From contig CP150183.1 of NCBI GenBank assembly GCA_037965595.1, positions 3,286,001-3,350,000 of the forward strand: a DNA stretch of 64,000 bases, given 5' to 3'. Of this stretch, positions 34,200 to 56,772 are shown one piece after another; the stretch's first letter is position 1, and each line of letters begins with the position of its first letter. The notes beneath the pieces were generated by a model. That model saw nothing but the letters and a program-made list of their open reading frames with translations. It was not told the origin of the DNA and ran no database searches. The stretch is from Alkalihalobacillus sp. FSL W8-0930. GTDB taxonomy: Bacteria; Bacillota; Bacilli; Bacillales; Bacillaceae_D. Position numbers and translations under genes: made by a program.

Positions 34200-34480
34200 A
34201 AAAATGAACATTTTTATAACCGCATTGAAGGTTGTGGAGTTATTCAAGAAGAACTGGGCTCGGAGCAAGAACTTTGAGTGTGTTACCAAGCTGAGAGAAG
34301 CTTTAGTAAGAGGAATAGAGGTTTTAGTAAGCCTGGAGCGAGTTCTATTAAGATGCAGGGTACGTTACCAAGGTCGGAGCGTCTGTTAGCAAGATCGGAC
34401 CTCTGTTACCAAGACTCCAGCGCCTCATATCAAGAACTCTCTCCGCCTTAGCAAGAGCTTTGTCCTCTTTACCAAGATCC
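34200..34480 (-). repeat. Twelve-unit CTTGG array (locus A)
   Basis: Read on the minus strand: twelve units with CTTG(G/C)TA-like cores. On the plus strand the AAG of each core starts at 34246, 34267, 34288, 34308, 34329, 34350, 34370, 34391, 34411, 34432, 34453 and 34474 (mean step 20.7). The inverted repeat AAAAATGAACATTTTT is at 34200-34215. It lies just beyond the terminator of the NlpC/P60 gene. Confidence 0.9.
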
Positions 34481-34495
34481 CCTCGCCCCCACACG

Positions 34496-34529
34496 CAAAA
34501 ACCCCCTCCGACACGGTCAGAGGGGGTTT
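34496..34529 (-). terminator. Terminator of NlpC/P60 gene
   Basis: Minus strand ACCCCCTC and GAGGGGGT arms (34501-34508, 34520-34527) with five T after. Confidence 0.9.
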
Positions 34530-34543
34530 AAATAAACGTTTAA

Positions 34544-35800
34544 TTAAAAGCGTTTTGCACCGATGTAGCGTGGTTTCCAGTAGCTGTTGTCCATGCTTGT
34601 GATCGTTACGCCTGAGCTAGATCCGGAGTGGATGAACTGGTTGTTTCCGATGTAGATTCCGTTGTGTGATGGGCCGGCTTTGTATGTTTCGAAAAAGACG
34701 ACGTCTCCCACTTGTAGGGAGGATACGCTTTTTCCGGCGCTGTATTGTGATGCTGCGGTTCTTGGGACTGAGATGCCTTGTTGTTTGAAGACATATTGGA
34801 TGAATCCGCTGCAGTCAAATCCAGATGGTGAGCCACCGCCCCATTTATATGGTACGCCGATGTGCTTAGAAGCTTCGGCTACGATGTTTGTAACGGTTGC
34901 ACCTGAGTTATTGTTGTTGCTTACTGTTTCACTTTTCACTTCAGTGTTTGGCTTGTATGTTGAGCCTTGTCCTAGTTTCGCGAATGTTTTTGGACCTGCA
35001 ATTCCGTCTGCTGTCAGCCCATTGGCACTTTGGAATTTACGCACGGCGTCGCGTGTGTCATTTCCGTAGTAGCCTGTTGGATTCTGGTTGAACACGCCAA
35101 CGGAGCGTAGTTGCGATTGAAGCTCAGTTACCGCAGCTCCTCTGCTTCCAACACGTAGGATGCTTGATGTTGCAGATGGGCTTGAGTTGGTGTTCTTTGT
35201 TGTTTGGTTTGATGGTGCTGGTGCTTTTGAGCCACCTGTGTTATTTAGTGCTGCAAATGTTTTTGGACCTGCAATTCCGTCTACTTGTAGGTTCTTGCTA
35301 CGTTGGAATGAGATGACTGCGTCTTTTGTTGTGTTGTCGTATTGTCCGTTAGGTTCTTTGTTTAAGAATCCAGCAGAACGTAATTGTGATTGTAATTGTT
35401 TCACTTGGTTGCCACTAGATCCTACGCGTAAAATGCCTGAGTAGGAAACATTTGTTGATGCTTGTGACGATGAAGTCGCTTTTTGAGACGATGATCCGCC
35501 TTTAAGTGCACCGATTGTTTTCGGTCCAGCAATTCCATCTGCGGATAATCCGTTTGCTTGTTGGAACTTACGAACAGCGTCTGTTGTGATCGTTCCGTAG
35601 TATCCAGTTGATTTTTCGTATGTAAAGAAACCTTTTGACTTCAGCTCGTCTTGAAGCTGAGTAACGTCTGAGTGACTCATCCCTTGGCGAAGTGTCTGAT
35701 CTCCTAGTGCTGCGTCTGCGATGGTTGGAGCGGCAAGTACGATTCCTGTAGCGACAGTTGTTGTTAATACGGCCTTTTTCATCTTAGTTGCTTGGTTCAA
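34544..35800 (-). CDS. NlpC/P60 cell-wall endopeptidase
   Basis: 418 residues. Signal peptide (residues 1-32, ends ADA), three peptidoglycan-binding type 1 domains each containing DGIAGPKT (around residues 40-100, 120-187, 212-275), a linker, and an NlpC/P60 domain with catalytic Cys in GFDCSGFIQYVF and His in GPSHNGIYIG. It would hydrolyse peptide stems of peptidoglycan outside the cell. TTG start at 35800 with AGGAGG at 35809-35814, eight bases upstream. Monocistronic, with its own terminator. Confidence 0.92.
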   Translation of the reverse strand: MNQATKMKKAVLTTTVATGIVLAAPTIADAALGDQTLRQGMSHSDVTQLQDELKSKGFFTYEKSTGYYGTITTDAVRKFQQANGLSADGIAGPKTIGALKGGSSSQKATSSSQASTNVSYSGILRVGSSGNQVKQLQSQLRSAGFLNKEPNGQYDNTTKDAVISFQRSKNLQVDGIAGPKTFAALNNTGGSKAPAPSNQTTKNTNSSPSATSSILRVGSRGAAVTELQSQLRSVGVFNQNPTGYYGNDTRDAVRKFQSANGLTADGIAGPKTFAKLGQGSTYKPNTEVKSETVSNNNNSGATVTNIVAEASKHIGVPYKWGGGSPSGFDCSGFIQYVFKQQGISVPRTAASQYSAGKSVSSLQVGDVVFFETYKAGPSHNGIYIGNNQFIHSGSSSGVTITSMDNSYWKPRYIGAKRF

Positions 35801-36039
35801 AAAAAGAACCTCCTCTATCTCTAGTTTATGTGGTATGTTTCGGCTGCGTGAGTCTAATGCGTCTAAAGTCCTATTTATTCCCGCATAATAATCTTACAAA
35901 ATAAGGGATATAACTCGAATATAAACTAAATTTTACACGAATTTTGTCTTCTAATCTATCATTGTAACGAAACTGTAATATTACATTTTGAACGTAACGA
36001 GAGCGTTCATGACAGGGATTAAAAGAAGTAGAGACACAC

Positions 36040-36063
36040 AAAAAATCCCCCAAGCGTGGGGGT
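36040..36063 (-). terminator. Terminator of ureohydrolase gene
   Basis: Minus strand ACCCCCACGCTTGGGGGATTTTTT: hairpin plus six T. Confidence 0.85.
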
Positions 36064-36081
36064 CATCGCGCTTATCTTTAT

Positions 36082-37065
36082 TTATTTTTTATAATTGATG
36101 TGTCCTGCCAGTGCATAAAGCGCAAGGGTTGAGGCAAAATGTGAGGAAATATCGTTTGCGTCCTGCTGAGGGTAGACTTCAACAAAATCCATTCCAACAA
36201 GTCCTCTTGATGCAAATTCATAGACAAGAGTCAGTAATTCATAGCTTGTGAGACCATTTACGTCGGCGGGTCCTCCGGGATTAAAGGCCACATCTAATAC
36301 ATCACTGCAAATAGATAGGTATACTAAATCGACATTGGCACTAGCCATGTCATATAATTCACCCGCGAACTCTCGTAGGTCAGTCGCTTCACGAATCTGG
36401 TTCACAGTCACCGTTTTGGCCCCGGCTTCTTTCGCATAACGTCCGGTCGCAGGCTTATTACGCGGTCCGTGAATTCCTGTGTGAATCAAGCTCTCATTCA
36501 CTACGCCATCCAGCTCATATAATCTAGCAAATGGTGTAGAGCGAGCGTACTTTTCGCCTTCATGGTGAGGCATATTATCGTAATGCGTATCTAGGTGTAA
36601 AATACCGATTTTCTTATCAGGGTATGCTTCAGTTAAGCCACGCACGATTGGATAGGTAATCCCATGATCGCCTCCAAGTGCGATTGGAAACGCCTTTGTT
36701 TTCCAGACATCCTTTGCAAACTTCGCAATACGGTTCATCGTCTCATCTACGTCGGCTGGAACGACATCTACGTCCCCTAGATCTGCTAGAGTTAAGTGCT
36801 CAAACACATCGATGTGATCGAGCTCCGGTAAATACCCTGAGTAACGCCCAGAACATAAGCGCATCACTTTAGGTCCGAGCTCACAGCCTGTGTAATCTCC
36901 CCAGGTGACAGCACCTTCCCATGGCACACCATAAATCAGAACATCCGCCTTTTCATAGGAATCGGTTGTTCCATTAATCGCTCCGAGAAAGGGCGGGGTA
37001 TTTCCATACAGCATTGAATTGTTGGTAGACATCCACTCATCCTTTCCTACAAACTCTTTGCTCAT
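36082..37065 (-). CDS. Arginase/agmatinase-family ureohydrolase
   Basis: 327 residues. The manganese-site motifs GGDHGIT and HLDTHYDN are present, but the third motif, normally SxDxDxxDP, reads LSICSDVLDVAFNPGGP, with Cys in place of the first Asp and Val in place of the Pro-preceding context. So family membership is firm, while agmatinase activity is not; a guanidine- or guanidino-acid-specific branch is possible. No signal peptide. Upstream start at 37065; a weak AAGGATGAG lies in front of the internal ATG at 37032, which would give MSTNNSMLYG and is an alternative start. Confidence 0.8.
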   Translation of the reverse strand: MSKEFVGKDEWMSTNNSMLYGNTPPFLGAINGTTDSYEKADVLIYGVPWEGAVTWGDYTGCELGPKVMRLCSGRYSGYLPELDHIDVFEHLTLADLGDVDVVPADVDETMNRIAKFAKDVWKTKAFPIALGGDHGITYPIVRGLTEAYPDKKIGILHLDTHYDNMPHHEGEKYARSTPFARLYELDGVVNESLIHTGIHGPRNKPATGRYAKEAGAKTVTVNQIREATDLREFAGELYDMASANVDLVYLSICSDVLDVAFNPGGPADVNGLTSYELLTLVYEFASRGLVGMDFVEVYPQQDANDISSHFASTLALYALAGHINYKK

Positions 37066-37141
37066 TACCCGTTTTGCAGATTGTTTAAACGTTTGTTTAA
37101 TAAAAAATGGTGCGGAACCATTGAGGTCCGCACCTTTTCCT

Positions 37142-37630
37142 TTATTGAAAGTTTTGTAGGAATGCTTGGCATCTGTGTGCTTTGGTTAGCGCGCCAAGAA
37201 ATTGATTGTGTGAGATGTCAAAGAAAACTTTGGTACGGTCCCTGAACGTGACCTGTGTACCATTCTTTCCTTCTTGATTCGTTTCATCAATTGCTACTAC
37301 GTGCCTTGAAAAGAACCACTCACATCTTGGATTTGAAGGTGAATGTGTCGGTGCCGCGATAATCGCTTGGCTTTCACTGATTAAGATCGGGGGCTTAGAT
37401 TTGATTCCTAGACTTGACACACTAAACGTTGAACGGCCATCGAAGCTTGAACCGTTTGTTAAGCAAGCTTGTTTAATTAACTGAAGAGGCGTTTGTTTTA
37501 CGTAGTATGTTTGATTCGATTCCATGATTACGGACGAGAATTCAATATCATATAAGGGTTTAATCAGTAACGTATCCTGAGTAATCTCATAATCGTCCGC
37601 GTGCTGAATGTGTGGTGTATATGTTGTCAT
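37142..37630 (-). CDS. comK: Competence transcription factor ComK
   Basis: 162 residues matching ComK throughout: YEITQDTLLIKPLYD, a CLTNGSSFDGR block, and the hallmark APTHSPSNPRCEWFFSRHV. ComK activates DNA-uptake genes by binding AT-boxes. AAGGAGG lies six bases before the ATG at 37630; the longer open frame to 37696 is not needed. Possible AT-boxes lie in the upstream region (37653-37676). It is divergent from a sigma factor gene whose frame begins in the shared region. Confidence 0.9.
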   Translation of the reverse strand: MTTYTPHIQHADDYEITQDTLLIKPLYDIEFSSVIMESNQTYYVKQTPLQLIKQACLTNGSSFDGRSTFSVSSLGIKSKPPILISESQAIIAAPTHSPSNPRCEWFFSRHVVAIDETNQEGKNGTQVTFRDRTKVFFDISHNQFLGALTKAHRCQAFLQNFQ

Positions 37631-37846
37631 AATGAGCCTCCTTAAGATTTTTAAAATGATACTTTTCTTTAAAAAGAACGAATTAAAAGCTGTCATTTGT
37701 GTATAATCTTGAGGTCATTTTTTGTAAAACTGGCCTTCCTCTCTTCCCGTTTCCCCTTTTTACCTACATGCACAAAACCCGGAACTCTCTTAATCTGTAT
37801 CTACCGCGGAATCCATAGAAAGCGCGCTTTCAGATTGGTTTATACA

Positions 37847-38365
37847 ATGAATTCTACGTTCGATCAGGTACTAACTCAGTACACCCCACTTATTAAGAGT
37901 CAGATTAAACGACTAAGTCTCATGCAGCATTATGATGAAGCCTATCAAGTTGCGATGATCGCCCTGTGGGACGCTCATCGCCGCTTCTCTCCGGAAAAAG
38001 GGGAATTTGCAGCCTTTGCACAGCTGCGTGTACGCGGTGATCTCATTTCCTACTTGCGTAAGGAGATTCGCATGGCAGAACGATTTGTACTGACGGATGA
38101 ATCCTCAGAACATCTGCTTGAGAATCTTTCTATCGAAGATGAATACGAGAACTCCGGGTTTTACTTCACTCCTTTCTTGAACCAATTATCACCACGCGAA
38201 CTGCTCTACGTTGAACAGGTGCTTATTCAAGGAAACAGCATCAAGTCTGTTGCTGCCAAAGAACATGTAACAGTGAACACTGTCGCCAGCTGGAGCAAAA
38301 CGGCGCGTCGTAAACTCCGAGAAATGGGAAAAACCCTCGGAGATCCACGAAAAATGAAGGATTAA
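37847..38365 (+). CDS. Sigma-70 family RNA polymerase sigma factor
   Basis: About 172 residues with a region 2 (YTPLIKSQIKRLSLMQHYDEAYQVAMIALWDAHRRFSP and FAAFAQLRVRGDLISYLRKE) and a region 4 helix-turn-helix (LSPRELLYVEQVLIQGNSIKSVAAKEHVTVNTVASW). It resembles the SigH/ComX-like small sigma factors more than ECF factors. The ATG at 37847 begins the conserved part, but no good ribosome binding site is seen; TTG at 37835 is an alternative. Divergent from comK, so a role in competence or a related late response is suggested by context only. No anti-sigma gene is adjacent. Confidence 0.8.
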   Translation: MNSTFDQVLTQYTPLIKSQIKRLSLMQHYDEAYQVAMIALWDAHRRFSPEKGEFAAFAQLRVRGDLISYLRKEIRMAERFVLTDESSEHLLENLSIEDEYENSGFYFTPFLNQLSPRELLYVEQVLIQGNSIKSVAAKEHVTVNTVASWSKTARRKLREMGKTLGDPRKMKD

Positions 38366-38448
38366 CTTACATTTTGTAATTCAGTTAAAATTATACTTGT
38401 CTGATAGCTGTCATGCAATTAATTTATCAAAATATTCTGTCAAATTAT

Positions 38449-39138
38449 CTAACAATAGAAATCATGGATGGTATACCCCACCCCATGAATGGTTTGGATA
38501 AAGCAAGGGTCCCCTTCTTTTAAAGGAAGCTTCTTTCGGATGTTACTAATATGAACCATGACTGTACCAGGATCATAGGGCCGCTCATCTCCCCATACAT
38601 GGTAAAACAGCTGGTTCGAGCTAAAGACAGTGTTTGGACTGTGCGCAAGAAATGTCAGGAGCTTAAACTCTTGGGCTGATAGATCAATCTGTTTATGATG
38701 ATGCTGGACTTTCTGTGATATTAAATCAATGGAAAGACCATTGAGCTGGAGCTCACACTGTTGTTGATCACGCGTTCGCTTATAATGATTCAGGTGTGCT
38801 TTTACACGTAACAGCAACTCTTCATACGGGACAGGCGTTGAAAGAAAATCATTAGCTCCCGCTTCGATTACGTTTTCCATCGTGAATGTTTGTCCAAGAG
38901 TCATGATGATGGGGATCACTGTCTGACCTCGAAGGAGTGTGCATAACTCGAGTGGCTCCCTGTCTAGTAAGGCTTCTCCAAGAATAATGAGCTTAGGTTC
39001 GAGCATCTGCATGACTCTTTCAAGCATGAAGTCACTTCGTTGCCTGATAAGAATAAACTTTTCTTTCTTTGCATCTCGGTCCAACTTTTCGTACAAATCA
39101 TCACTGTCATCTATCAGAAGAATTTGTGCCCTTGCCAT
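38449..39138 (-). CDS. OmpR-family response regulator, atypical receiver
   Basis: 229 residues: receiver domain (1-115) and winged-helix DNA-binding domain (130-225; SAQEFKLLTFLAHSPN, VHISNIRKKL, IHGVGYTI). In the receiver the acidic pair is present (IDDS), but the phosphoacceptor Asp is replaced by Gly54 (IILGEALL) and the conserved Lys by Thr101 (FLSTPVP). It should therefore not be phosphorylated in the normal way, and no histidine kinase gene is adjacent. GAGGGAAG precedes the ATG. Confidence 0.85.
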   Translation of the reverse strand: MARAQILLIDDSDDLYEKLDRDAKKEKFILIRQRSDFMLERVMQMLEPKLIILGEALLDREPLELCTLLRGQTVIPIIMTLGQTFTMENVIEAGANDFLSTPVPYEELLLRVKAHLNHYKRTRDQQQCELQLNGLSIDLISQKVQHHHKQIDLSAQEFKLLTFLAHSPNTVFSSNQLFYHVWGDERPYDPGTVMVHISNIRKKLPLKEGDPCFIQTIHGVGYTIHDFYC

Positions 39139-39243
39139 CTTTCTCTTCCCTCGCTTCTACTTTTTTATAGTATACGTGGTAAAGAAGGATTTTCATAGTA
39201 ATAACAAGGACTTTTGTCACAAAATATTTGCCTAACTTCATAG

Positions 39244-39276
39244 GAAAAAGACCCCTGTCTATGCAACAGGGGTCTT
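39244..39276 (-). terminator. Terminator of lipoprotein gene
   Basis: AAGACCCCTGT pairs with ACAGGGGTCTT; on the minus strand five T follow. Confidence 0.9.
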
Positions 39277-39283
39277 CTGCCAT

Positions 39284-39550: not shown

Positions 39551-39719
39551 ACGTTGACCTCCCGCAATGCGTAGTTGTTTTGATCAGCTATCATCTTACC
39601 AACGCCTGCGCCAGTCGTCTATTAAACAAGCCCGAGTTATACATTCTTTTGCAGGAACACACGGTCTCCCATATTGCACACATCCAATGATTCACGTAGC
39701 ACGCCTTATAGACGTGCCA

Positions 39720-41106: not shown

Positions 41107-41381
41107 CTTGGTTGGAGGGGTTTTGGGCTTGGTATTGGGGTCAAAGTTCTTAGTGTTTGGTTTGTTGCTCTTGGTATAAGGGGTGCGGGCTTGGTGTTTT
41201 TGGTTTGGGCTTGGTATCGGGGGTCTTTTCTTGGTGGAGATGGCTGCGGGCTTAGTAATTTGGCGTTTGCTCTTGGTGCTGGGTTCATCTCTCTTGGTAA
41301 CGCATGTAAGGGCTTGGTATTGGTGCTGTTGAGCTTGGTTCTGGTTTTGAGTTCAGTGCATTTGGAAAAATGAACATTTTT
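41107..41381 (+). repeat. Twelve-unit CTTGG array (locus B, copy 1)
   Basis: Cores (CTTGG or CTTAG) start at 41107, 41128, 41149, 41170, 41190, 41210, 41230, 41251, 41272, 41293, 41313 and 41334. Inverted repeat AAAAATGAACATTTTT at 41366-41381. First copy of a 296-bp higher-order tandem. Confidence 0.93.
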
Positions 41382-41402: not shown

Positions 41403-41677
41403 CTTGGTTGGGGTGGCTTGCAGCTTGGTATTGGGGTGAGTGTTCTTGGTGTTTGGTTTGTTGCTCTTGGTATGAGGGCGGCGGGCTTGGTATTTTTGTT
41501 TTGAGCTTGGTATTAGGGGTCTTTTCTTGGTGGAGATGGCTGGGGGCTTAGTGTTTTAGCGGTTTTTCTTGGTGTTGGGTTCATCTCTCTTGGTAACGCA
41601 TGTGGGTTCTTGGTATTGGTACCGTTAAGCTTGGTTCTGGTTTTGAGTTCAGTGCACTTAGAAAAATGAACATTTTT
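41403..41677 (+). repeat. Twelve-unit CTTGG array (locus B, copy 2)
   Basis: Cores at 41403, 41424, 41445, 41466, 41486, 41506, 41526, 41547, 41568, 41589, 41609 and 41630: exactly copy 1 shifted by 296 bases, with scattered substitutions. Inverted repeat at 41662-41677. Confidence 0.93.
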
Positions 41678-41698: not shown

Positions 41699-41760
41699 CT
41701 TGGTTTGGATGGTTCGGAGCTTGGTTATGATTTCAGAGTTCTTGGTGTTTGTCCCGCTGT
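41699..41760 (+). repeat. Truncated CTTGG array (locus B, copy 3)
   Basis: Only units 1-3 (cores at 41699, 41720, 41741) are recognisable, again 296 bases after copy 2; the rest fades into unrelated T-rich sequence before the chemoreceptor gene. Confidence 0.8.
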
Positions 41761-42029
41761 TTTTAATATTTCTGTTTTTTGTCTTTATAGGTGATGCATC
41801 CCAACCATCAGCTTGGTCTTTTTCTCATTCATTCTTAGAGGAGTTTAAACTCTATCTCATATTTTTCCGATTTTTAAATGAAACTCGTTCAGGACTCGTC
41901 GACGCTTCATATTAAATGTTTTACCTGAGAAGTCGATAAAAAGAATGTTGCATTATACATATCATTTAATCCGGAATAATGAGTGGGAATGTATGTTGCA
42001 AAATAAAACATATAGGAGTTCTAAACAAG

Positions 42030-44048
42030 ATGAAAACAAAAAAAGAGAAACAACCAACCGGTAAAACGTTGTCAATGCGTTCAAAATTAATATTGGCTTT
42101 TTCCATTGTGCTTATTTTGCCTAGTATCATTATTGGATTTAGCTCATATCAAAGTGCAAGCTCAAACATTGAAGATAAACTACAAAGTTCAACAACAGAA
42201 AGTTTATCAATTATTGATGATACAATTAGTAATTTTATTCAATCTCAAAAAGAAAATATTGCCTACATTGCAGACGCTAGTGATATTGAAAATGGGTTTC
42301 TGGAAGAAGAGACGGAAGAACAGAGAATATTGCTTGATACGTTCCAGAATACAAAAGCAGATGTAGAACAGACCTTTGTAGGTACCGAAGAGGGAAACTT
42401 TATGAACTCTCCTACATCGTTTCAAAATCCTCCTGACTATGACCCGCGTGAAAGACCTTGGTATCAAACTGCTATGGACGCGGGACAAGAAATCATTCTT
42501 ACCGCTCCATATATCTCTGCTTCATCTGGGGAGCCAGTAACAACAGTCGCTAGAACGACCGCAGATGGACTTGGTGTTGCCGCTCTTAATTTAAAACTTA
42601 GTGAAATTACCGATATGTTAAATAATATTACAATAGGTGAGAAAGGCTATGTCTTTCTATTAGATCAGAATAATATGTATGTATCACACCCTACCGAAGA
42701 GCTTGGAGAGCCTGCTGCTGAAGAATTCCTCTCATTCCAGGATTCAGTAAGTGGAAAAATAGATTATCTTTATAACGAAACCGAGCAAACGTTAAATTAT
42801 TTAACAAACGAAGAAACAGGATGGAAGATTGTTGCGGTCATGGATCAGGCTGAGATTCAACAAGCATCAACACCTATCCTACACACAACATTACTTGTAT
42901 TGGTTTCCTCATTAATCGTCGGACTAATTGTTATCTTCTTCTTGTTGCGTTCGATTGTTGGACCAATCTCACTTTTGACGAAAGTGGCGGAGCGAATGAG
43001 TCAAGGTGATTTGGGCACAAAATATGAAGTGCATCCAAATCGTAACGATGAGATTGGACGTTTAGGAAAAGCATTTGAACATATGAGATTCGCATTATCA
43101 ACCATGCTAACAAGTGTCCAAGATAAAGCACAGCACTTGGCAGCTTCTTCAGAGGAGCTTGCTGCAAGTACGGAAGAGAATACACGAGCTACCGAACAAA
43201 TATCGGATGAAATGCAGGAGATGGCCACCGGTGTAGAAACGCAGAGTGAAAGAATCAAACAAGGAAACACTGTTTCTATCCAGATGGCACAGTCTGTTCA
43301 AACCGTCTCACAGCGTACTGAACAAGTTCAAAACACAGCATCTAATGCATCTCATTTAGTTCAAGACGGGAATAAAGCCATTCAAACAAGTGTAGAACAA
43401 ATGACTCAGATTAAAGATACCGTCCAAGAATTATCCGCAAGTGTTCAGGGGCTTGGTAAAAGCTCGGATGAAATTAGTAAGGTTGTTGATGTGATTAAAA
43501 GTATTGCCGAACAAACAAATCTGTTAGCTTTAAATGCAGCGATTGAAGCGGCTCGTGCAGGTGAACAAGGAAAAGGGTTTGCTGTCGTGGCTGAACAAGT
43601 AAGGAAGCTTGCTGAACAGTCTGCAGAATCGACACAAGTCATTGGTGGTATTATACAATCCATTCAAAAGGAAACAACGCACACGGTGAAAAAAATGGAT
43701 GAGAGTACAAATCAAGTTGAAAAAGGAATTGAAGTGGTTCATGTTGCAGGTAAAGCGTTTACAGAAATGAAGAAGTTTGTAGACGAGGTAGCAATGGAGG
43801 TCGCTGAGGTCTCAGAACAGACAAAGCAGATGGCTGCAGGGACTGATCAATTTGTAAAAACCTTTAATGATATTTCTACCATATCTGAAAATACAGCAGC
43901 TAGCACCGAAACAGTGTCTGCTTCAACGCAGGAACAGCTGGCTTCTATGGAAGAAATCTCTGCTTCTGTTGAGACATTAACAGGACTTGCTGAAGAACTC
44001 CAAGGATTAGTTCAACAATTTGAAGTAAAAGAAAATGATTCTATTTAA
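42030..44048 (+). CDS. Methyl-accepting chemotaxis protein
   Basis: 673 residues. N-terminal membrane helix (about 20-40), extracellular dCache-type sensor ([22 protein letters not shown] and [11 protein letters not shown] are typical), second membrane helix (about 285-308), HAMP ([22 protein letters not shown]) and a long cytoplasmic signalling domain with the conserved hairpin tip [20 protein letters not shown]. It would signal through CheA/CheW. TAGGAG lies eleven bases before the ATG at 42030; the longer start at 41979 has none. Ligand not predictable; dCache receptors often sense amino acids. Confidence 0.92.
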
Positions 44049-44240
44049 TTTCTTTGCTAGCAAAGTATTTAAAGCAGAAAAACTGGCTTCTTATATGTTA
44101 CATGTTACGAATTATGACCATCCTCTTGCTTTAACGCTGTATAACGCTCTTCCACCTCGGTTGTCTTAATAATAAATCGCTAGTAATAACTTATTCTTTA
44201 CGCTTTTTTTATAAATGACCATACAATTTAAACAATAAAA

Positions 44241-44275
44241 AAGTAGCTACGTTTTTCTTCGTAGCTACTTCTTTA
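44241..44275. terminator. Bidirectional terminator
   Basis: AAGTAGCTACG (44241-44251) pairs with CGTAGCTACTT (44260-44270), flanked by A-rich and T-rich sequence. It separates the convergent chemoreceptor and collagen-like genes. The 190 bases before it hold nothing I can assign. Confidence 0.9.
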
Positions 44276-44316
44276 TTATATTAAAGGTTTACAAGAATTT
44301 AAATTATTTATTAAAG

Positions 44317-45504
44317 TTAACTTATACCTAACCCTGCACTTGCATAACCAGCAACAGCATTAACTAAGCTAACCCCCGCAGCCGTTGCTGAGAAAACAAT
44401 TAAAAGACGGTCTCCTGCAGTTACTGGAATGGAAAGTCCTGTTACGTTACCAGTAGAAATAGTTCCTATAGACACTAATCCCGTTAATGGTGGTGTCAGC
44501 GTAACAGATGCTCCAGGTATTGCTGTTAAGATATTTGTTGCGACCGGACCTGGAGAACGGAAAACTTGCGCTGTTATTGTTACAGTAGTACCAACTAATG
44601 CTAGTGCAGCAGTGGTACTGAATAAGGCCGATAATGAAGTGATTACACCATCCCTTGGTACGATAAATGCAAAGTTTAGTAAGGTACCTGCAGCCCCTGT
44701 TAAATCAATCGTGTCGCCTCCGAGTAAACTTACTCCTGTTACAGAGTTACCAAACCCGACAAGACTTGTAGTACCAACTAATCCCCCAAGAACTGTAGTT
44801 AAGGCCGTTGGAAGACCAGATGCAAATGGGATAATCGCTCCGTTTCCAGCCACTCCTGTTGCTCCCGTTGGCCCTGGGGCTCCTGTCCCTGCTGGTCCTG
44901 TTGATCCTGTTGGTCCCGTTGGTCCCGTTGGCCCTGGGGCTCCTGTCCCTGCTGGTCCTGTTGGTCCCGTTGGTCCTGTTGGTCCTGTTGGTCCCGTTGG
45001 TCCCGTTGACCCTGGAGGTCCACTCGGGACAAATAATTGACTGGAAGAAATTAGTGCAACATCATCAATGACAATGTCAGACCCACCAACAATAGGGGCA
45101 ATAGTGAACGTAATGGTTGCTGAGGCTGCTCCTACTGGTACGATTGGAGTGGTTTCATACACAGTTAACCACGTTTCATTTTCAACAACTGGTAAACCAG
45201 ACGTTTCAATGACCACCGAAGTAGTCGCCCCAACAGCATTAAAGACTGCATCGAAAAATTGAACGGTTAAAACCACCTGTGGAGATGGAAGTCCAGTTGT
45301 TCTCGCCAGCGAGGCCAATACCTCAAAGCTCTCACCTGGTTCTATCGCAACATTTTGAGAAAGACTTGCACCTGTAGCACTAGAAAGTTGAACCGCATAG
45401 AGACCTGTATGGCTAAATGACGTAGTAAGAAAACCATTTGTAACAATCCATGGAACCAATGTTCCCGTTTCAAAACCACTGTTTAAAAGACGGTTAATTA
45501 ACAT
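44317..45504 (-). CDS. BclB-like collagen-like exosporium protein
   Basis: 395 residues in three parts. Residues 1-155: an NTTRR-F1-like beta domain ([31 protein letters not shown]). Residues about 160-220: collagen-like Gly-Pro-Thr triplets in two runs interrupted by AGTGAPG. Residues 222-395: a hydrophobic trimer-forming domain ([34 protein letters not shown]) matching BclB-type exosporium glycoproteins. Probably part of the spore outer layer, O-glycosylated on Thr. AAGGAGG before the ATG. Monocistronic. Confidence 0.88.
44840..45035 (-). repeat. Collagen-triplet DNA repeats
   Basis: Nine-base GGTCC(T/C)GTT units encode Gly-Pro-Thr. A larger unit containing GGGGCTCCTGTCCCTGCTGG occurs twice (about 44876 and 44936). 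Length polymorphism is likely. Confidence 0.85.
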
Positions 45505-45924
45505 CTTTACCTCCTTAGTAACTCCAATAATATTAGAGCTTTGATATCTTATGGGAAAGATAGATGTTGGAAACTCGATACGCCTATATGCATGTATAAT
45601 TCAGCAGATAGATGGATAGTAAATAATTTAGTGGATTTACCAAAGAATACTTGTAACAGATATATGGGTTTGCCCCTTAAATGGCATTCAATAGATTTAA
45701 ATAGTTGATATCAACTTCACATCACTGTAACTTAAATGGCTTATGGTGAATAAAATATTGTTAGTAAGTTCTTACATCAATTTTTCTTTGGTGTATGGCT
45801 TCTCCTCTACCTTTCCCCTTAATAGGAGCATTAAGGGGGATTTGTTTATTAAATAACTTTTTACAAGAAGAACGGTACTACATATGGTTATGTAGAATGA
45901 TATTTTATACTCAGTACAACAAAA
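45505..45924. other. Gene-free region upstream of collagen-like gene
   Basis: Contains the promoter side of the collagen-like gene and a strong hairpin at 45814-45840 (TCCCCTTAAT with ATTAAGGGGGA, then TTTGTTT), which looks like an orphan plus-strand terminator. No coding sequence recognised; the open frame from 45795 is a shadow over the IS relic. Confidence 0.5.
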
Positions 45925-46126
45925 TAAAATCCAAAACGCTTTTAGAGATCTCGCTCATTCTTGCCCTCAGGCATTCCCCATGTCAACAAACGTTGTATCT
46001 TAAACCTTCATCTTATCTCTCTACCCAGTTGTGGAGCATCTGTTCAGTCATATCTAATTCCCTACCTACTTCAGCTATCCGTTATCTATCCGTTCATACC
46101 ATTTCAACTGTTTGAACCTTGAACTC
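45925..46126 (-). pseudogene. IS3-family transposase OrfA relic
   Basis: On the minus strand one frame reads EFKVQTVEMV, stop, TDR, stop, RIAEVGRELDMTEQMLHNWVER, stop, DEGLRYNV, stop, HGECLRARMSEI. The helix-turn-helix block AEV.REL....LHNWV and the following G-HG..LR spacing are those of IS3-family OrfA. At least four stops make it dead; no OrfB or terminal repeats are visible. It directly adjoins a CTTGG array. Confidence 0.7.
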
Positions 46127-46191
46127 TACCTGTATCCAAATTTACCTGTCCATTTTTTTACTAGCATCACTTTGCTGATGGAGATTGTGGG

Positions 46192-46321
46192 CTTGGTGAG
46201 TTGGTGCTTTCTCTTGGTGTTTGGTTCATCGCTCATGGTAAAGAGGGTGATGATTGGTATTTGTGCTGTTGCTCTTGGTTTAGACTTGAGGTCTAATGCA
46301 CTTAGAAAAATGAACATTTTT
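46192..46321 (+). repeat. Partial CTTGG array, units 8-12 (locus C, copy 1)
   Basis: Cores at 46192, 46213, 46234 (CATGG), 46253 (ATTGG) and 46274, then AAAAATGAACATTTTT at 46306-46321. The spacing and flanking bases correspond to units 8-12 of a full array. Confidence 0.8.
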
Positions 46322-46342: not shown

Positions 46343-46619
46343 CTTGGTTGGGTCGGGTTTCAGCTTAGTGATGCGGAGAGAGTCCTTGGTGTTTGGTTCG
46401 CTGTTCTTGGTATGGAGGGGGCGGGCTTGATGTTTTCATTTTTGTCTTGGTGTGGAGGGTCCTTTCTTGGTGGAAGTTGCTGGGGGCTTGGTTAGGGAGC
46501 GGTTTCTCTTGTTGTTGCTCGCGCGGTTCTTGGTAACGAGGGTTCGGGCTTGGTATTGGTTCTTTTTTTCTTGGTATTAGGTTTGGAGTTCAATGCTCTT
46601 AGAAAAAATGGACTTTTTT
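46343..46619 (+). repeat. Twelve-unit CTTGG array (locus C, copy 2)
   Basis: Cores at 46343, 46364, 46385, 46406, 46426, 46446, 46466, 46487, 46508, 46529, 46549 and 46570: the same step order (21,21,21,20,20,20,21,21,21,20,21) as locus B. The closing inverted repeat is decayed (AAAAAATGGACTTTTTT, 46603-46619). Confidence 0.93.
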
Positions 46620-50486: not shown

Positions 50487-50490
50487 TCGT

Positions 50491-50520: not shown

Positions 50521-50550
50521 GTGGTTTAGTTTGGTGGGGGTGTGGGTTTG

Positions 50551-51191
50551 TTGATTTTGTTTGCTCTTTGTTGATTCCGCTTCCTCTTTGTTGATTCTTT
50601 CCTCTCTTTGTTGATTCCGCTTCCTCTTTGTTGATTCTTTCCTCTCTTTGTTGATTCCGCTTCTTCTTTGTTGATTCTTTCCTCTCTTTGTTGATTCCGC
50701 TTCCTCTTTATTGATATCTTCTTCTCATTGTTGATTCCGACTCTTCTTTGTTGATTCTTTCCTCTCTTTGTTGGTTCGGCCTCCTCTTTGTTGATTCTTT
50801 CCTCTCTTTGTTGATTTAGCTTCCTCTTTGTTGATATCTTCTTCTCATTGTTGATTCCATCCTCTCTCCGTCGATTCCATCCTCTCTCCGTCGATTCCGT
50901 CCTCTCTCCGTCGATTCCGTCCTCTCTCCGTCGATTCCGTCCTCTCTCCGTCGATTCCGTCCTCTCTCCGTCGATTCCGTCCTCTCTCCGTCGATTCCGT
51001 CCTCTCTTCGTCGATTCCGTCCTCTCTCCGTCGATTCCGTCCTCTCTCCGTTGATTCCGTCCTCTCTCCGTTGATTCCATCCTCTCTCCGTCGATTCCGT
51101 CCTCTCTTCGTCGATTCCGTCCTCTCTTCGTCGATTCCGTCCTCTCTTCGTCGATTCCATCCTCCTCTTCGTCGATTCCCGCTCCCCCTCC
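50551..51191. repeat. 32-unit array of 20-bp repeats
   Basis: TTGATT or TCGATT cores recur every 20 bases from 50551 to 51151, plus one at 51172. Left half (about 16 units) alternates two types, CCGCTTCCTCTTTG and CTTTCCTCTCTTTG after the core; right half is nearly homogeneous (TCGATTCCGTCCTCTCTCCG). The period is not a multiple of three, so three phases stay open on both strands and create spurious long frames. Fills the gap between the Ytr-like operon and the EpuA-like gene. Confidence 0.95.
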
Positions 51192-51227
51192 ATCAATCCT
51201 GCGTCCCCCATCGTCCCTCCAAACACA

Positions 51228-51604: not shown

Positions 51605-51635
51605 GTATCTCTCTCCAGTCGAGCAACGTTTGCAA

Positions 51636-52448: not shown

Positions 52449-52475
52449 GAACAATCTCCTTTATAAGCCTTGGTG

Positions 52476-53276
52476 TTAGCCAATTCTGCCTACTTCATTC
52501 ACTGCTTTATCTAAGCTTTGATCATATGCCTGCAGTACTTTTTGATTCGCTTCAAATGTACGCATCGCACTCATCATATCTGCCATCGTCTGGTTAGAGT
52601 CTACGTTCGACTGTTCCACAAAACGCTGACGAATTTGAAAATCAAAGGCATTTGCTGGCAGCTCTTCTTCCGCGCGTAGGAGTCCATTTCCTTCTTTTAC
52701 AAGGGTCTGTGCATCTTCCGCATAGGCAATGCCAATCTGACCAAGGTTCACACCCTCAGAGCTTGTAATGGCTCCTTGCTCATTGATTAAAAATTCCTCG
52801 TTCTCTACCTGAATCGGTTGTCCTGCTGCGTTTAATACAGGGTAGCCTTCTGTTGTAACAAGCTGTCCAGAATCACTAACCGCAAACTGACCATTACGCG
52901 TATAACGAGGTGTCCCGTCATCCCCTTGCACCGTAAAGAATAGCATAGGGCGCGCACCCGCATCACCCTCAGGAAGCACGCCATCAAGTAGCGCAAAGTC
53001 CGTGCCATTTCCCGTTTCAACTAGAGATCCCTGAATGAAGTTTGGAGTGGCCTCCTGCATGTAGGTACCCGTTGAAAGGGAGCCAATCTGGTACCCTCTC
53101 CCCGTAACTGTATTGACGTTTCGTGCTTCTAAAAGCATCTCAGGGAAGGACCTGATACTTGCTTGATCCGCTTTATATCCTGGTGTTTGGGCATTGGCCA
53201 GATTATTTGTTAGCATTTCCTGACGTTGTTGCTGAGTCAGCATTCCGGCTGCTGCTCCGTATAAACCACGTAGCAT
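52476..53276 (-). CDS. flhO: Flagellar basal-body rod protein FlhO
   Basis: 266 residues, FlgF/FlgG family: MLRGLYGAAAGMLTQQQRQEMLTNNLANAQTPGYK at the N-terminus and MMSAMRTFEANQKVLQAYDQSLDKAVNEVGRIG at the C-terminus. GAGAGGAGAG before the ATG. Eighteen bases after mbl, so likely cotranscribed. Confidence 0.92.
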   Translation of the reverse strand: MLRGLYGAAAGMLTQQQRQEMLTNNLANAQTPGYKADQASIRSFPEMLLEARNVNTVTGRGYQIGSLSTGTYMQEATPNFIQGSLVETGNGTDFALLDGVLPEGDAGARPMLFFTVQGDDGTPRYTRNGQFAVSDSGQLVTTEGYPVLNAAGQPIQVENEEFLINEQGAITSSEGVNLGQIGIAYAEDAQTLVKEGNGLLRAEEELPANAFDFQIRQRFVEQSNVDSNQTMADMMSAMRTFEANQKVLQAYDQSLDKAVNEVGRIG

Positions 53277-53294
53277 GACAACTCTCCTCTCAGA

Positions 53295-54299
53295 TTAGAC
53301 GCGAGCTCGTTTCTTACTCATTTTATCTAGGTTTTCTAAAATTAATCCTGTACCCTTTGCTACACAGTGCATTGGGTCTTCTGCCACAAGAACTGGTACT
53401 TTAAGCTCTTCAGCAAGTAACTCGTCAATTCCGTGTAGAAGGGCTCCCCCACCTGTTAAGATGACTCCGCGATCGATGATATCTGCAGATAACTCAGGAG
53501 GTGTTTTTTCAAGTACTTCTTTTGCAGCTTGTACAATGTAAGAAGCTGATTCAGTAAGCGCTCCTTGAATTTCTTCTGTACGTACCGTAATCGTTCTTGG
53601 AAGACCACTTACTAGGTCACGCCCACGAATCTCGAGTTCCTCTTGACGTCCGCCTGGGAATACGGTGGCTACGGTTTTCTTAATGTTTTCAGCTGTACGC
53701 ACACCAATTAACAGCTTGTACTGCTTTTTAATGTACGTTAAAATTTCCGAATCAAAACGGTCCCCAGCGACTTTAATTGATGAGGCGGTGACGATATCAC
53801 CCATGGAAAGAACAGCAACATCTGTTGTTCCACCGCCTATATCAATGACCATGTTTCCGCTAGGTTGAAAAATATCCATACCGGCGCCGATTGCTGCGAC
53901 CTTAGGCTCTTCTTCTAGATAGACATCCTTCCCACCGCTGCGCTCAGCCGCTTGACGGATGGCCTTTTGCTCAACAGATGTAATGTTGGTTGGGCAACAG
54001 ATTAAAATACGAGGCTTTGAGAACATGCTTCTTACTTTAATCTTATCCAGAAAATGCTTCAGCATCGATTCAGTTAAGTCAAAATCAGCAATAACGCCGT
54101 CTTGCATTGGACGGATCGCCACAATATTCCCAGGAGTACGTCCTACCATCCGATATGCTTCCTCACCTACAGCTAATACGCTTTTCGAAGAGGTTTCCAT
54201 AGCCACAACAGATGGCTCATCAAGGACAATTCCACTTCCCTTTACAAAAATAAGTACGTTCGCCGTTCCTAAATCAATTCCAATATCTCGACCAAACAT
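53295..54299 (-). CDS. mbl: MreB-like actin homologue Mbl
   Basis: 334 residues: GIDLGTANVLIFVKG (phosphate 1), IDIGGGTTDVAVLS (phosphate 2), and ILTGGGALLHGIDELL (adenosine site). Directs sidewall peptidoglycan synthesis at the membrane. The gene order spoIIID-mbl-flhO-flhP identifies it as mbl rather than mreB. GGGAGG before the ATG. Confidence 0.95.
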   Translation of the reverse strand: MFGRDIGIDLGTANVLIFVKGSGIVLDEPSVVAMETSSKSVLAVGEEAYRMVGRTPGNIVAIRPMQDGVIADFDLTESMLKHFLDKIKVRSMFSKPRILICCPTNITSVEQKAIRQAAERSGGKDVYLEEEPKVAAIGAGMDIFQPSGNMVIDIGGGTTDVAVLSMGDIVTASSIKVAGDRFDSEILTYIKKQYKLLIGVRTAENIKKTVATVFPGGRQEELEIRGRDLVSGLPRTITVRTEEIQGALTESASYIVQAAKEVLEKTPPELSADIIDRGVILTGGGALLHGIDELLAEELKVPVLVAEDPMHCVAKGTGLILENLDKMSKKRARV

Positions 54300-54523
54300 G
54301 ATTCGTTCCTCCCTATAATTCGAACATTATGTCATCATTTACAATTTTCTAAAGGCTATCGTCTCTTCTTACCAGCATCCGACTGAGTCACCCTTACAAA
54401 ATTGCAAACATGCATCGTCGTGGGGCGGTACTCAAAATGTGCTCGAGTCCAGATTGACAGGCCTATATACCTAATTGTAGATTTTATCATATAATGTTTG
54501 ATTAGGGATGATTTTGGGGAAAT

Positions 54524-54811
54524 TTATTGACGAGATTTTACAATTAAATGGTCCGAAACATCTACAGTCTTTCGATACTTGACTTTCGTCGCTTCTCCAC
54601 CGCGCAAATGGCGAATCGATTTGTGATACTCAAGAATGTCCTTCACCTCATTTGCCAGCTCCGCATTAATTTCGGGCAGACGCTCCGTGAGATCCTTGTG
54701 TACAGTACTTTTTGAGACTCCAAACTCTTTTGCAATCGTCCTCACCGTTTTTCGAGTCTCAACAATGTACCTGCCTATCTTGATAGTTCGCTCTTTGATG
54801 TAATCATGCAC
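54524..54811 (-). CDS. spoIIID: Sporulation transcription factor SpoIIID
   Basis: 95-residue DNA-binding protein controlling mother-cell gene expression: helix-turn-helix VRTIAKEFGVSKSTVHKDLTERLPEIN and the basic C-terminal helix YHKSIRHLRGGEATKVKY. GTG start (54811) with GGGAGG eight bases upstream; the protein begins MHDYIKERTIKIG, as in B. subtilis. Upstream of mbl with a 220-base gap. Confidence 0.97.
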   Translation of the reverse strand: MHDYIKERTIKIGRYIVETRKTVRTIAKEFGVSKSTVHKDLTERLPEINAELANEVKDILEYHKSIRHLRGGEATKVKYRKTVDVSDHLIVKSRQ

Positions 54812-54949
54812 ACGACTCGCCTCCCTAATTCTGTGTTGGTGATTGGTACAGTTTATTAGGGAGTGGATATAGATATACCACCTTATTATAAGGACGAGCG
54901 CGGTTTCTGCGTGTACGAGCTTACAAAAGAGGCAGCACGTGTATCATAA

Positions 54950-55264
54950 TTAGCTTACAGACTTCAGACCTATAACAGAAACGAGAATAATCGTAATGAA
55001 CAGAACCCTCTTCCAATCACGAGATTCTCCGTAAAAAAACATGCCGATTAAGGCTCCACCAAACGCTCCAATCCCAGTCCAGACCGCATATACAGTCCCC
55101 ATCGGGAGCGAATCCATCGCATAAGACAATAACGCGAAACTAGCCGCAAACCCTAGTATGAGACCGATAATCGGCTTCGGACCTGGCTTACTCTTCAACT
55201 GGTTCATCATCGTTACACCAAACAACTCACACATTCCAGCCAAGATCAAACTAATCCATACCAT
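54950..55264 (-). CDS. ykkD: SMR guanidinium exporter subunit YkkD
   Basis: 104-residue, four-helix small multidrug resistance protein: MVWISLILAGMCELFGVTMMNQ with the membrane Glu in helix 1, and MGTVYAVWTGIGAFGGALIGM. Highly like YkkD. Overlaps ykkC by 14 bases; the two form a heterodimeric exporter of guanidinium. Confidence 0.92.
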   Translation of the reverse strand: MVWISLILAGMCELFGVTMMNQLKSKPGPKPIIGLILGFAASFALLSYAMDSLPMGTVYAVWTGIGAFGGALIGMFFYGESRDWKRVLFITIILVSVIGLKSVS

Positions 55265-55601
55265 GTTCGCTCACACTCCCTGTATCGGCTTCTTTTGTCA
55301 CCATCTTTAGCCCAACCACCCCAATTAAAAGAGTGATAATAAATAGTAATTTTAGCGAGGGAAGCGGCTGTGAAAACACCAGCGTATCCACCGCAACCGA
55401 ACCAACCGTACCAAGCCCCACAAACACCGCATACGCCGTGGCCACAGGCAGGACTTTAGTCGCCTGAATCAGCAGCACAAAACTACAAGCAATCGCAACA
55501 ATCGTGAGCCCCCACTCAAGCACCGACGACGCCTTATTTAAACCCATCACCCAGCCAACCTCAAACATGGCTCCGATGATTAACAACATCCAATTTCTCA
55601 T
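55251..55601 (-). CDS. ykkC: SMR guanidinium exporter subunit YkkC
   Basis: 116 residues, four membrane helices: MRNWMLLIIGAMFEVGWVMGLN with the functional Glu in helix 1, and LPVATAYAVFVGLGTVGSVAVD. Matches YkkC. Directly downstream of the guanidine-I riboswitch and first gene of the pair. Confidence 0.92.
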   Translation of the reverse strand: MRNWMLLIIGAMFEVGWVMGLNKASSVLEWGLTIVAIACSFVLLIQATKVLPVATAYAVFVGLGTVGSVAVDTLVFSQPLPSLKLLFIITLLIGVVGLKMVTKEADTGSVSEHGMD

Positions 55602-55626
55602 CCTACTCTCTCCTCTCTACACACAC

Positions 55627-55770
55627 GAAAAAGCCCGGAAGATCCGCACACCTCACGTGTGCAATCATCTCCCGGGCTTTTGTCCCTCCGTGTCACAGCC
55701 AAACGCTGTGCGCCCCCTCTCGGACCAGACCTGCAGCACAGTGGCAGCAGCGGAACCCTAGGCGGTCAAT
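55627..55770 (-). ncRNA. Guanidine-I (ykkC) riboswitch
   Basis: The minus strand carries the ykkC hallmarks in order: CTAGGGTTCCG (from about 55765), TGGTCCGAGAG, then ACGGAGGGACAAAAGCC and CGGGAG. The 3' part (AGCCCGGGAGAT) can instead pair with ATCTTCCGGGCT at 55632-55643, followed by TTTTTCG, to form a terminator. Guanidine binding to the aptamer should prevent that and turn on ykkCD. Confidence 0.95.
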
Positions 55771-55776
55771 TTTGCT

Positions 55777-55805
55777 ATTATAACGTAGGATGGCGGGGAG
55801 ATCAA
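55777..55805 (-). promoter_or_regulatory. Promoter of riboswitch-ykkCD
   Basis: Minus strand TTGATC (55805-55800), a 17-base spacer and TATAAT (55782-55777). Transcription should begin a few bases before the aptamer. Confidence 0.8.
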
Positions 55806-55845
55806 TGGGAGAGGTTGGAGGTGAGGCGGGTGTGGGGGGTGGCTT

Positions 55846-56093
55846 CTTGGTAAGTGTGCGCTCTTTCTTGCTGTAGGTGCTTCGGGGCTTGGGATGGGTC
55901 TTGGTATCGAGGGGACGGGCTTGGTAACGCCGCCGCTCTTCTTGCTATCAGCTCTCTCTTCTTGGTTGGCCCCCCGCTTTTTCTTGATGGATTGTACGTT
56001 CTTCTTGGTAAGAGGGGTGGGTTCTTGGTATTTCTGCCGTTCTTCTTGCTAATTCCCTAGACGTTCTTACTAAAATGAAAAATGTTCATTTTT
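55846..56093 (+). repeat. Twelve-unit CTTGG array (locus D, copy 1)
   Basis: Cores at 55846, 55867, 55888, 55900, 55920, 55941, 55961, 55983, 56004, 56024, 56045 and 56066; the 12-base step after 55888 shows a 9-bp internal deletion. Inverted repeat AAAAATGTTCATTTTT at 56078-56093 (centre TT instead of AA). Confidence 0.9.
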
Positions 56094-56114
56094 TTCCTTA
56101 TGTCAGTGAGGATT

Positions 56115-56371
56115 CTTGGTATTGGGCCGGTGTTTCTTGCTTCAGCTGCTCACGGGCTTGGTATCGCGCTCTTTCCTCTTGGTATCGAGCGCCCAATCTT
56201 GATAACGCCTCCGCTCTTCTTGCTATCGGCCCTCTCTTCTTGATTGGACCCCCGCTTTTTCTTGATGGATTGTGCGTTCTTCTTGGTAAGGCTCCTCGGT
56301 TCTTGGTATTTCTGCCGTTCTTCTTGCTAACTCCCCAGACGCTCTTACTAAAATAAAAAATGAACATTTTT
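56115..56371 (+). repeat. Twelve-unit CTTGG array (locus D, copy 2)
   Basis: Cores at 56115, 56136, 56157, 56178, 56198, 56219, 56239, 56261, 56282, 56302, 56323 and 56344 (steps 21,21,21,20,21,20,22,21,20,21,21). Inverted repeat AAAAATGAACATTTTT at 56356-56371. Confidence 0.93.
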
Positions 56372-56391
56372 TCCTTATGTCAGTGGAGGGT

Positions 56392-56647
56392 CTTGGTTTG
56401 CGTGTGATTCTTCTTGGTGTACGTGCTCCAGATCTTGGTATCACGCTCTTCCTTCTTGGTATCGAGCGCCCAATCTTGATAACGCCTCCGCTCTTCTTGC
56501 TATCGGCCCTCTCTTCTTGGTGCATCCCCCGCTTTTTCTTGATAGTTCCTGCGTTCTTCTTGGGAAGGTGCTTATGGGCTTGGTACTTCTTCCGTTCTTC
56601 TTGCTAATTCCCAGACGCTCTGACTAAAATAAAAAATGTTCATTTTT
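56392..56647 (+). repeat. Twelve-unit CTTGG array (locus D, copy 3)
   Basis: Cores at 56392, 56413, 56434, 56455, 56475, 56496, 56516, 56538, 56559, 56579, 56600 and about 56620: copy 2 shifted by 277 bases. Inverted repeat with TT centre at 56632-56647. Confidence 0.93.
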
Positions 56648-56668
56648 TTCCTTATGTCAGTGGGTCTT

Positions 56669-56772
56669 CTTGATAGATCCCGCGTTCTTCTTGGTAAGGC
56701 TCCTCGGTTCTTGGTACTTCTGCCGTTCTTCTTGCTCCCACTCCCGTTCTTCTTGCTAACCCGCTCCCATGC
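56669..56772 (+). repeat. Partial CTTGG array, units 8-12 (locus D, copy 4)
   Basis: Cores at 56669, 56690, 56710, 56731 and 56752, matching units 8-12 of copy 3 (for example CTTGATAG...CCGCGTTCTT). No closing inverted repeat. Confidence 0.85.

What the first reader, a model, noticed from the sequence alone, without database searches (positions are those of the whole stretch)
34200..56772. Dispersed family of twelve-unit CTTGGTA arrays capped by AAAAATGWWCATTTTT
Seven full and several partial copies of one non-coding element lie in four intergenic loci of this window. Each full copy has exactly twelve degenerate 20-22-bp units with a CTTG(G/C)TA-like core, then a spacer and a 16-bp inverted repeat with AA or TT at its centre. 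Sequence between cores has diverged a lot between loci, but unit number, order of steps and cap are kept, which implies selection on spacing or recent homogenisation. Units are not palindromic, there are no spacers as in CRISPR, and I know of no named family that matches. It may be a multi-site target for a DNA-binding or nucleoid protein, a structured RNA, or a mobile cassette.
Basis: seen in the sequence. Interest (0 to 1): 0.92.

Follow-up and report, generated by a model that had tools for sequence, protein, structure and literature searches.

The report
Phased twelve-site DNA arrays, probably protein-bound
Between genes, Alkalicoccobacillus bacteria carry dozens of arrays in which one short DNA word recurs about every two turns of the double helix, and evolution keeps the word while the letters between drift freely, so an unknown protein probably reads them.

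Summary
The window holds seven full twelve-unit arrays plus fragments, in a genome with about 31 such loci. As far as sampled, the family is confined to one genus, Alkalicoccobacillus: 5 of 5 genomes have many copies, 3 of 36 others of the family have one weak match each.

The decisive result compares orthologous arrays in two species (14 of 31 loci). The core CTT(G/A)NT is almost frozen (3-5% changed), while DNA between cores drifts at the third-codon-position rate (28-30%), in two separate sets (p about 1e-40 and 1e-37). Neither strand folds as RNA, and predicted curvature is ordinary.

All four close copies of an IS3-family element sit inside these arrays, 1-2 bp before a core; a diverged fifth sits in a different array family of similar pitch. 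Loci are concentrated in the origin half of the chromosome.

Best reading: rows of sites on duplex DNA for an unidentified protein, possibly chromosome-organising. The palindromic cap and the count of twelve are subfamily features. No binder was identified; listings of open-access papers showed no description.

The parts
34233..34476 (-). full twelve-unit element, single copy
   Evidence: model R1 positions 1-244, E 2.7e-34; same step code in sister species G001
   Evidence: exact match
33656..33671 (.). cap of what looks like a decayed partial copy; 33641-33713 and 34188-34262 resemble each other by eye
   Evidence: exact match of the cap; sequence; both stretches align to one place of G001
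41107..41348 (+). full twelve-unit element, steps 21,21,21,20,20,20,21,21,21,20,21
   Evidence: cap 41366-41381
41403..41644 (+). full twelve-unit element, same step code
   Evidence: cap 41662-41677
41699..41751 (+). first three units of a third copy, broken off at a 4.4-kb segment
   Evidence: sequence
41752..46175 (.). about 4.4 kb between two array halves in this genome, absent from the orthologous array of G001; holds a chemoreceptor gene (41979-44048 +) and a collagen-like ORF (44317-45504 -, Pfam score below the family cut-off)
46176..46285 (+). last units of the broken copy, then cap 46306-46321
46343..46580 (+). full twelve-unit element, same step code as at 41107; degenerate cap 46604-46619
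55846..56083 (+). full-length element with degenerate first units; cap 56078-56093
   Evidence: model 1-246, E 2.0e-35
56115..56360 (+). full twelve-unit element, steps 21,21,21,20,21,20,22,21,20,21,21; cap 56356-56371
   Evidence: best match of the model, E 9.3e-44
56392..56637 (+). full twelve-unit element; cap 56632-56647
   Evidence: model 1-246
56667..56764 (+). partial copy, last five units
50547..51179 (+). array of a different family (GTTGATTCC / GTCGATTCC units) with 20-bp period
   Evidence: Tandem Repeats Finder; sequence

Best explanation
Each array is a row of base-specific recognition sites (core 5'-CTT(G/A)NT-3', extended to CTTGNTAW in 20-bp units) placed about every two turns, so on about one face, of double-stranded DNA. 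An unidentified DNA-binding protein fills the row cooperatively and builds a regular nucleoprotein filament or wrap. The arrays are kept because each locus is useful in place, most likely as one of a set of markers or anchors concentrated in the origin half of the chromosome (a centromere-like or nucleoid-organising role). Shown: constraint on the core, near-neutral drift between cores, steps of mostly 20-21 bp, positions between genes, genus restriction as far as sampled, origin enrichment, IS insertion in register with the cores. Inferred: that a protein binds, that it binds duplex DNA, cooperativity, and the chromosome role. The last is the weakest step; I give it about 0.3 on its own.
For: Orthologous arrays of G000 and G001, 14 of 31 loci in two sets. 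Set 1 (five loci in three aligned regions: window 31-60 kb, window 25-40 kb, and 3.36-3.38 Mb): core positions changed 17 of 520 (C1 0/104, T2 1/104, T3 1/104, G4 13/104, T6 2/104), inter-core 369 of 1311, first, second and third codon positions 728 of 11065, 414 of 11070 and 3083 of 11064, other intergenic 787 of 6702; Fisher p 4e-40 for core against inter-core. Set 2, nine other loci (a tenth, L051, gave no aligned array and dropped out): core 26 of 520, inter-core 448 of 1500, third codon positions 6158 of 21651; p 1.6e-37. In 20-bp units positions 7-8 are also kept: 4/58 changed against 33/117 in 21-bp units (p 8e-4), and in set 2 4/43 against 38/112 (p 0.002), so step length and sequence are coupled. 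Steps in G000: 19 bp 3, 20 bp 86, 21 bp 191, 22 bp 10, and 33 of 39-44 bp where a unit is missed or elements join; mean of the single steps about 20.7. RNA folding is ordinary. 26 of 31 loci lie in the origin half of the genome (p 2e-4), and 29 of 39 loci on one arm of species G003 (p 0.003), with dnaA at base 1 of G000. Four of four close IS3 copies lie in arrays with the target duplication 2-5 or 3-6 bp before a core.
Against: No binding protein was found, and no genome-wide search for one was made. Mean pitch differs between species (G002 about 20.4, the others about 20.7), so it is not one exact number. Indel constraint is only moderate: 87 of 96 comparable steps had equal length in set 2, and gap events per kb in aligned arrays (11.3) are like those of other intergenic DNA (12.3) in set 1. 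Spacers change faster than other intergenic DNA (28% against 12%), which could partly reflect misaligned tandem copies. Orientation relative to replication is biased in G000 (24 of 31 read toward the origin, counted by hand, p 0.003) but not in G003 (20 to 19). Origin enrichment could reflect where old, stable intergenic DNA lies. IS targeting could be a property of the transposase alone.
Confidence: 0.62

Rival explanations
1. RNA-level function: the arrays are transcribed and the CUUGNU words are bound as single-stranded RNA by an RNA-binding protein, as a sponge or stability element.
For: Several arrays lie next to terminator-like sequences (by eye); the core is short, and single-stranded recognition of such words is common. 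Conservation of cores alone does not exclude it.
Against: No consistent strand relative to neighbouring ORFs: sense, antisense, convergent and divergent positions all occur (simple ORF caller). Steps of 20-21 bp fit duplex DNA. No structure on either strand (25 elements). Three other array families of the same genome, with other words, also have a pitch of 20-20.5 bp (by eye).
Confidence: 0.12
2. Selfish or mobile element: cores are sites for a recombinase or transposase that spreads the element; conservation reflects recent activity.
For: Dispersed paralogous copies, tandem copy number differing between sister species, IS elements and a 4.4-kb segment inside arrays.
Against: Orthologous copies at the same sites show near-neutral divergence between cores and near-frozen cores, which dead copies would not keep. 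No match of one element pair on plasmids or phages.
Confidence: 0.12
3. Constraint is on DNA shape (intrinsic bending or flexibility) rather than on reading by a sequence-specific protein.
For: Pitch near two helical turns; several unrelated words share it.
Against: Predicted curvature equals that of shuffled sequences (mean z -0.12 over 25 elements; wedge values recalled from memory). C1, T2 and T3 are nearly frozen base by base while most of the rest is free.
Confidence: 0.06
4. Tandem amplification and homogenisation alone (satellite-like DNA) without function.
For: Higher-order repeats of 62 bp in G004 and of 277-296 bp in the window.
Against: Homogenisation cannot conserve 5 positions of each unit and leave the others at the neutral rate in orthologues.
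Confidence: 0.05

Closest known systems
REP / BIME repeats of enterobacteria and pseudomonads
   Same: Dispersed intergenic repeats, bound by proteins, and precise landing sites of IS3-family elements such as IS1397 and ISPsy8 (PMC1525189, passages seen)
   Different: REPs are palindromic, 21-65 bases (same passages); here the units are non-palindromic direct repeats at about two-turn pitch with no RNA fold
Plasmid iterons and centromere arrays (for example the 20-bp repeats bound by ParR of pSK41; recalled, not from a call)
   Same: Non-palindromic direct repeats spaced by about two helical turns, bound in a row by one protein
   Different: Here on the chromosome at about 31 loci; no initiator or partition family among ten proteins near the window arrays (Pfam); binder unknown
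Noc-binding sites of Bacillus subtilis
   Same: Chromosome-wide set of about 70 binding sites, scarce near the terminus (PMC4726725, passages seen)
   Different: Single 14-bp palindromes; a noc gene is present here, but the canonical site (letters recalled) has 0 exact and 2 one-mismatch places in G000
ram sites of RacA in Bacillus subtilis
   Same: Dense near the origin, spread over the rest of the chromosome (PMC6593407, passages seen)
   Different: ram is recalled as a short inverted repeat; racA was not searched for here
Other 20-21 bp arrays in Bacillales (this work)
   Same: Pitch; some share the word TTGGT
   Different: Other cores, other genera; homology not shown

Membership tests
CRISPR | near-identical repeats separated by unique spacers of fixed length | tested here: not met
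   5-6 bp core inside degenerate units; stretches between cores are shared by unit position between loci
REP/BIME | imperfect palindromic unit able to form a hairpin | tested here: not met
   unit consensus not palindromic; folding z about -0.5 and -0.3
REP/BIME | specific target of insertion sequences | tested here: met
   4 of 4 close IS3 copies inside arrays in one of two adjacent registers; this shows resemblance, not membership
Plasmid iteron / centromere array | direct repeats at about two-turn spacing | tested here: met
   single steps of mostly 20-21 bp, within an allowed range of 19-23
Plasmid iteron / centromere array | linked initiator or partition gene on a plasmid | tested here: not met
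   ten proteins near the window arrays show no such Pfam family (one has no family); no plasmid match for one element pair. Neighbours of the other loci were not scanned
Structured RNA family | match to a known family or stable fold | tested here: not met
   at gathering scores only a guanidine-I riboswitch, outside the arrays; z-scores
Noc-binding sites | palindrome ATTTCCCGGGAAAT (letters recalled) | tested here: not met
   0 exact and 2 one-mismatch places in G000; not the array core
RacA ram sites | bound by RacA | not tested
   no RacA sequence was at hand
Transposable element (MITE type) | terminal inverted repeats and target duplications | not tested
   the inverted-repeat cap lies at one end of a subset of copies; no systematic search for element ends was made

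The most novel reading that the evidence does not exclude
Bacillales carry a so far undescribed class of chromosomal helically phased arrays: each genome has several families with unrelated words but nearly the same two-turn pitch, each read by its own member of a protein family, together forming a dispersed centromere-like or nucleoid-positioning system that IS elements exploit as safe landing sites.
Probability: 0.3. Interest if true: 0.9.

Novelty: new variant of a known kind. Interest (0 to 1): 0.74.

Why it matters
About 31 intergenic loci carry a six-base word that, where tested (14 loci), changes about as slowly as second codon positions (3.3% against 3.7%; 5.0%) while most of the DNA beside it drifts freely. 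That is a strong sign of an unknown DNA-reading system. Because the word, the pitch and the loci are all known, the binder can be fished out with one oligonucleotide. If the chromosome role holds, it would show how a bacterium with a noc gene but almost no canonical Noc sites marks the origin half of its chromosome. The shared pitch of unrelated array families would raise a general question about intergenic DNA in Bacillales.

Tried and rejected
Structured RNA: 25 elements folded on both strands, no signal; Rfam at gathering scores found only a guanidine-I riboswitch. Intrinsic curvature: no signal with wedge parameters recalled from memory. Replication polarity: significant in G000 (24 of 31), absent in G003 (20 to 19), and mixed for other array families when coordinates are read against the skew (by eye, no test), so dropped as a feature. 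TTGGT as a universal word: the three-word pattern finds arrays in several genera, but its reversed control also finds some, and a census without a word shows other words, so only the pitch is claimed to be shared. Mobile element on plasmids or phages: no match for window 56115-56641. Synteny through the chemoreceptor gene in four named genomes gave the genus, but none of the four 22-kb stretches holds a CTTG array; one of them, from A. porphyridii, holds a 20-bp array with another word. Literature: the listings (15 of 232 papers listed, 20 of 62, two calls without hits) show no title or abstract that describes such arrays; only open-access papers are held and none of these hits was opened. The locus at 1266082 (E 0.0026) was left out of the 31 as likely coding (nearly all steps 21 bp).

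Full report
What is there. The window is bases 3286001-3350000 of a 3.885-Mb single-contig genome. By its chemoreceptor gene (91% identical to Alkalicoccobacillus gibsonii) it belongs to Alkalicoccobacillus or very near it. Chains of CTTG-type cores run at the places named; 19 of 20 single-base shuffles of the window gave no chain. The step order 21,21,21,20,20,20,21,21,21,20,21 is identical at 41107, 41403 and 46343, and 21,21,21,20,21,20,21 or 22,21,20,21,21 recurs whole or in part at several distant loci.

Copies in the genome. A sequence-only model from 24 elements finds 59 pieces in the genome. Leaving out one likely coding match at 1266082 and merging neighbours by hand, I count 31 loci. 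Those examined with a simple ORF caller lie between longer ORFs or run into an ORF end; short ORFs inside arrays were taken as spurious. In the alignment units 6 to 9 have their own consensus at distant loci, so these are dispersed copies of one element, not independent arrays. The 16-bp cap has only 10 exact sites in the genome and marks a subfamily.

Range. A three-core pattern gives 84 to 760 matches in 5 of 5 genomes of the genus, with 0 for the reversed control. Among 397 genomes sampled in the order, three of them from the genus, 73 have at least one match; outside the genus the counts are 0 to 7, about the size of the control counts. The model gives 51 to 86 matches in the five genomes of the genus (a search that scored at most 51 candidate stretches each) and one weak match in 3 of 36 other genomes of the family. 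In G004 the same core is arranged in a 62-bp repeat of 21+21+20, and in G002 the mean step is about 20.4 (from the step counts).

Selection. In orthologous arrays of G000 and the sister species G001, core positions changed 17 of 520 times, inter-core positions 369 of 1311, third codon positions 3083 of 11064, second codon positions 414 of 11070, other intergenic DNA 787 of 6702 (five loci). Nine further loci gave 26 of 520, 448 of 1500, and 6158 of 21651 for third codon positions. Together these are 14 of 31 loci; the rest were not compared. Cores were chosen in G000 only, so the choice of cores does not explain their state in G001. Misaligned tandem copies could inflate the spacer figure, but the single-copy locus at 34 kb shows the same direction (2 of 55 against 21 of 140). 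Units of 20 bp keep two more bases after the core than units of 21 bp do, so spacing and sequence are coupled. Against a strict spacing rule: gap events per kb in aligned arrays are like those of other intergenic DNA, and 9 of 96 compared steps differed in length, some of them probably jumps of the alignment; the search for chains allowed only steps of 19-23 or 39-44 bp.

Not RNA, not bent, not seen on mobile DNA. Folding z-scores average -0.52 and -0.28 (25 elements); curvature z averages -0.12 (25 elements); plasmid and phage collections have no match to window 56115-56641.

Insertions. Of five copies of an IS3-family element (NF033516, 328.9 bits) found at E<=1e-40, the four close ones (93.6% or more identical DNA) lie inside arrays. 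Their 4-bp duplications end 1 or 2 bp before a core, and the interrupted unit is 21, 21, 21 or 20 bp long when read across (by eye). In G001 three of these sites were examined and the joined flanks align across the junction, so the element seems absent there; tandem paralogues make the exact orthologue uncertain for two of the three, and at the fourth site G001 is rearranged. The fifth copy (68% identical, one stop) lies in another array family with 20-bp units TTTTTGCGCA / TTTTTGAGCA. This resembles IS elements that insert into REP sequences (PMC1525189, passages).

Position. dnaA is at base 1. 26 of 31 loci lie in the origin half (p 2e-4), and no locus lies between 1.66 and 2.38 Mb (chance 0.0017, a stretch chosen after the fact). 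On the sampled arm of G003, with arm ends set by me from the skew, 29 of 39 loci lie in the origin half, but three lie close to its skew switch near 0.4 Mb, so terminus depletion is not strict. The list for G003 was cut, so 39 is a lower bound. A noc gene is present in G000 (375.8 bits, cut-off 315), yet the canonical Noc site is nearly missing in all five genomes (no exact copy, 1 to 3 one-mismatch places). I have no control count from other genera.

Wider picture. In evenly placed stretches of four genera (1.40 Mb in all; nine stretches moved onto known hits were left out) 38 arrays of 3.5 or more copies were counted as non-coding, that is outside longer ORFs or with a period that breaks the reading frame: 15 with period 20-21 or a multiple of such steps, 14 with 52 or 53, 9 others, one of them CRISPR-like by its repeat. 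In G000 5 of 5 have 20, 40 or 41. Three other families compared with G001 keep their words and pitch too (by eye). The 52-bp arrays often hold inverted repeats (by eye) and may be a separate matter.

Judgement. A row of sites on duplex DNA for an unknown protein explains the substitution pattern, the pitch and the lack of RNA structure. The chromosome role rests on position alone and is a proposal.

Noticed in passing
G000:C1 319119, 371389, 2907698, 3768391 (L039, L040, L050, L286): All four close copies of one IS3-family element sit inside the CTTG arrays, with 4-bp duplications ending 1-2 bp before a core; the sister species seems to lack it at the three sites examined.
   Followed up: yes
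G000:C1 3387929 (L293): A diverged fifth copy with one stop sits inside an array of a different family (TTTTTGCGCA / TTTTTGAGCA, 20-bp units).
   Followed up: partly
window 50547-51179; L173 8443-8622; L169 1-202; L182 5933-6203; L172 18520-19000; L183 11209-11584: At least four further array families in this genome, with other words and periods of 20, 40 or 41 bp.
   Followed up: partly
L207, L211, L213, L215, L219, L221 (G194); L226, L227, L230, L240, L243 (G022): Many arrays of 52-53 bp period in two other genera, several with inverted repeats inside the unit (by eye).
   Followed up: no
window 41752-46175: A 4.4-kb segment with a chemoreceptor gene and a collagen-like ORF lies inside an array that is unbroken in G001.
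   Followed up: partly
window 55667-55772 and 55251-55601: Guanidine-I riboswitch in front of a small multidrug resistance family gene, next to the 56 kb arrays.
   Followed up: no
five genomes of the genus: A noc gene is present in G000, but the canonical Noc-binding palindrome (letters recalled) has no exact copy in any of the five genomes.
   Followed up: partly
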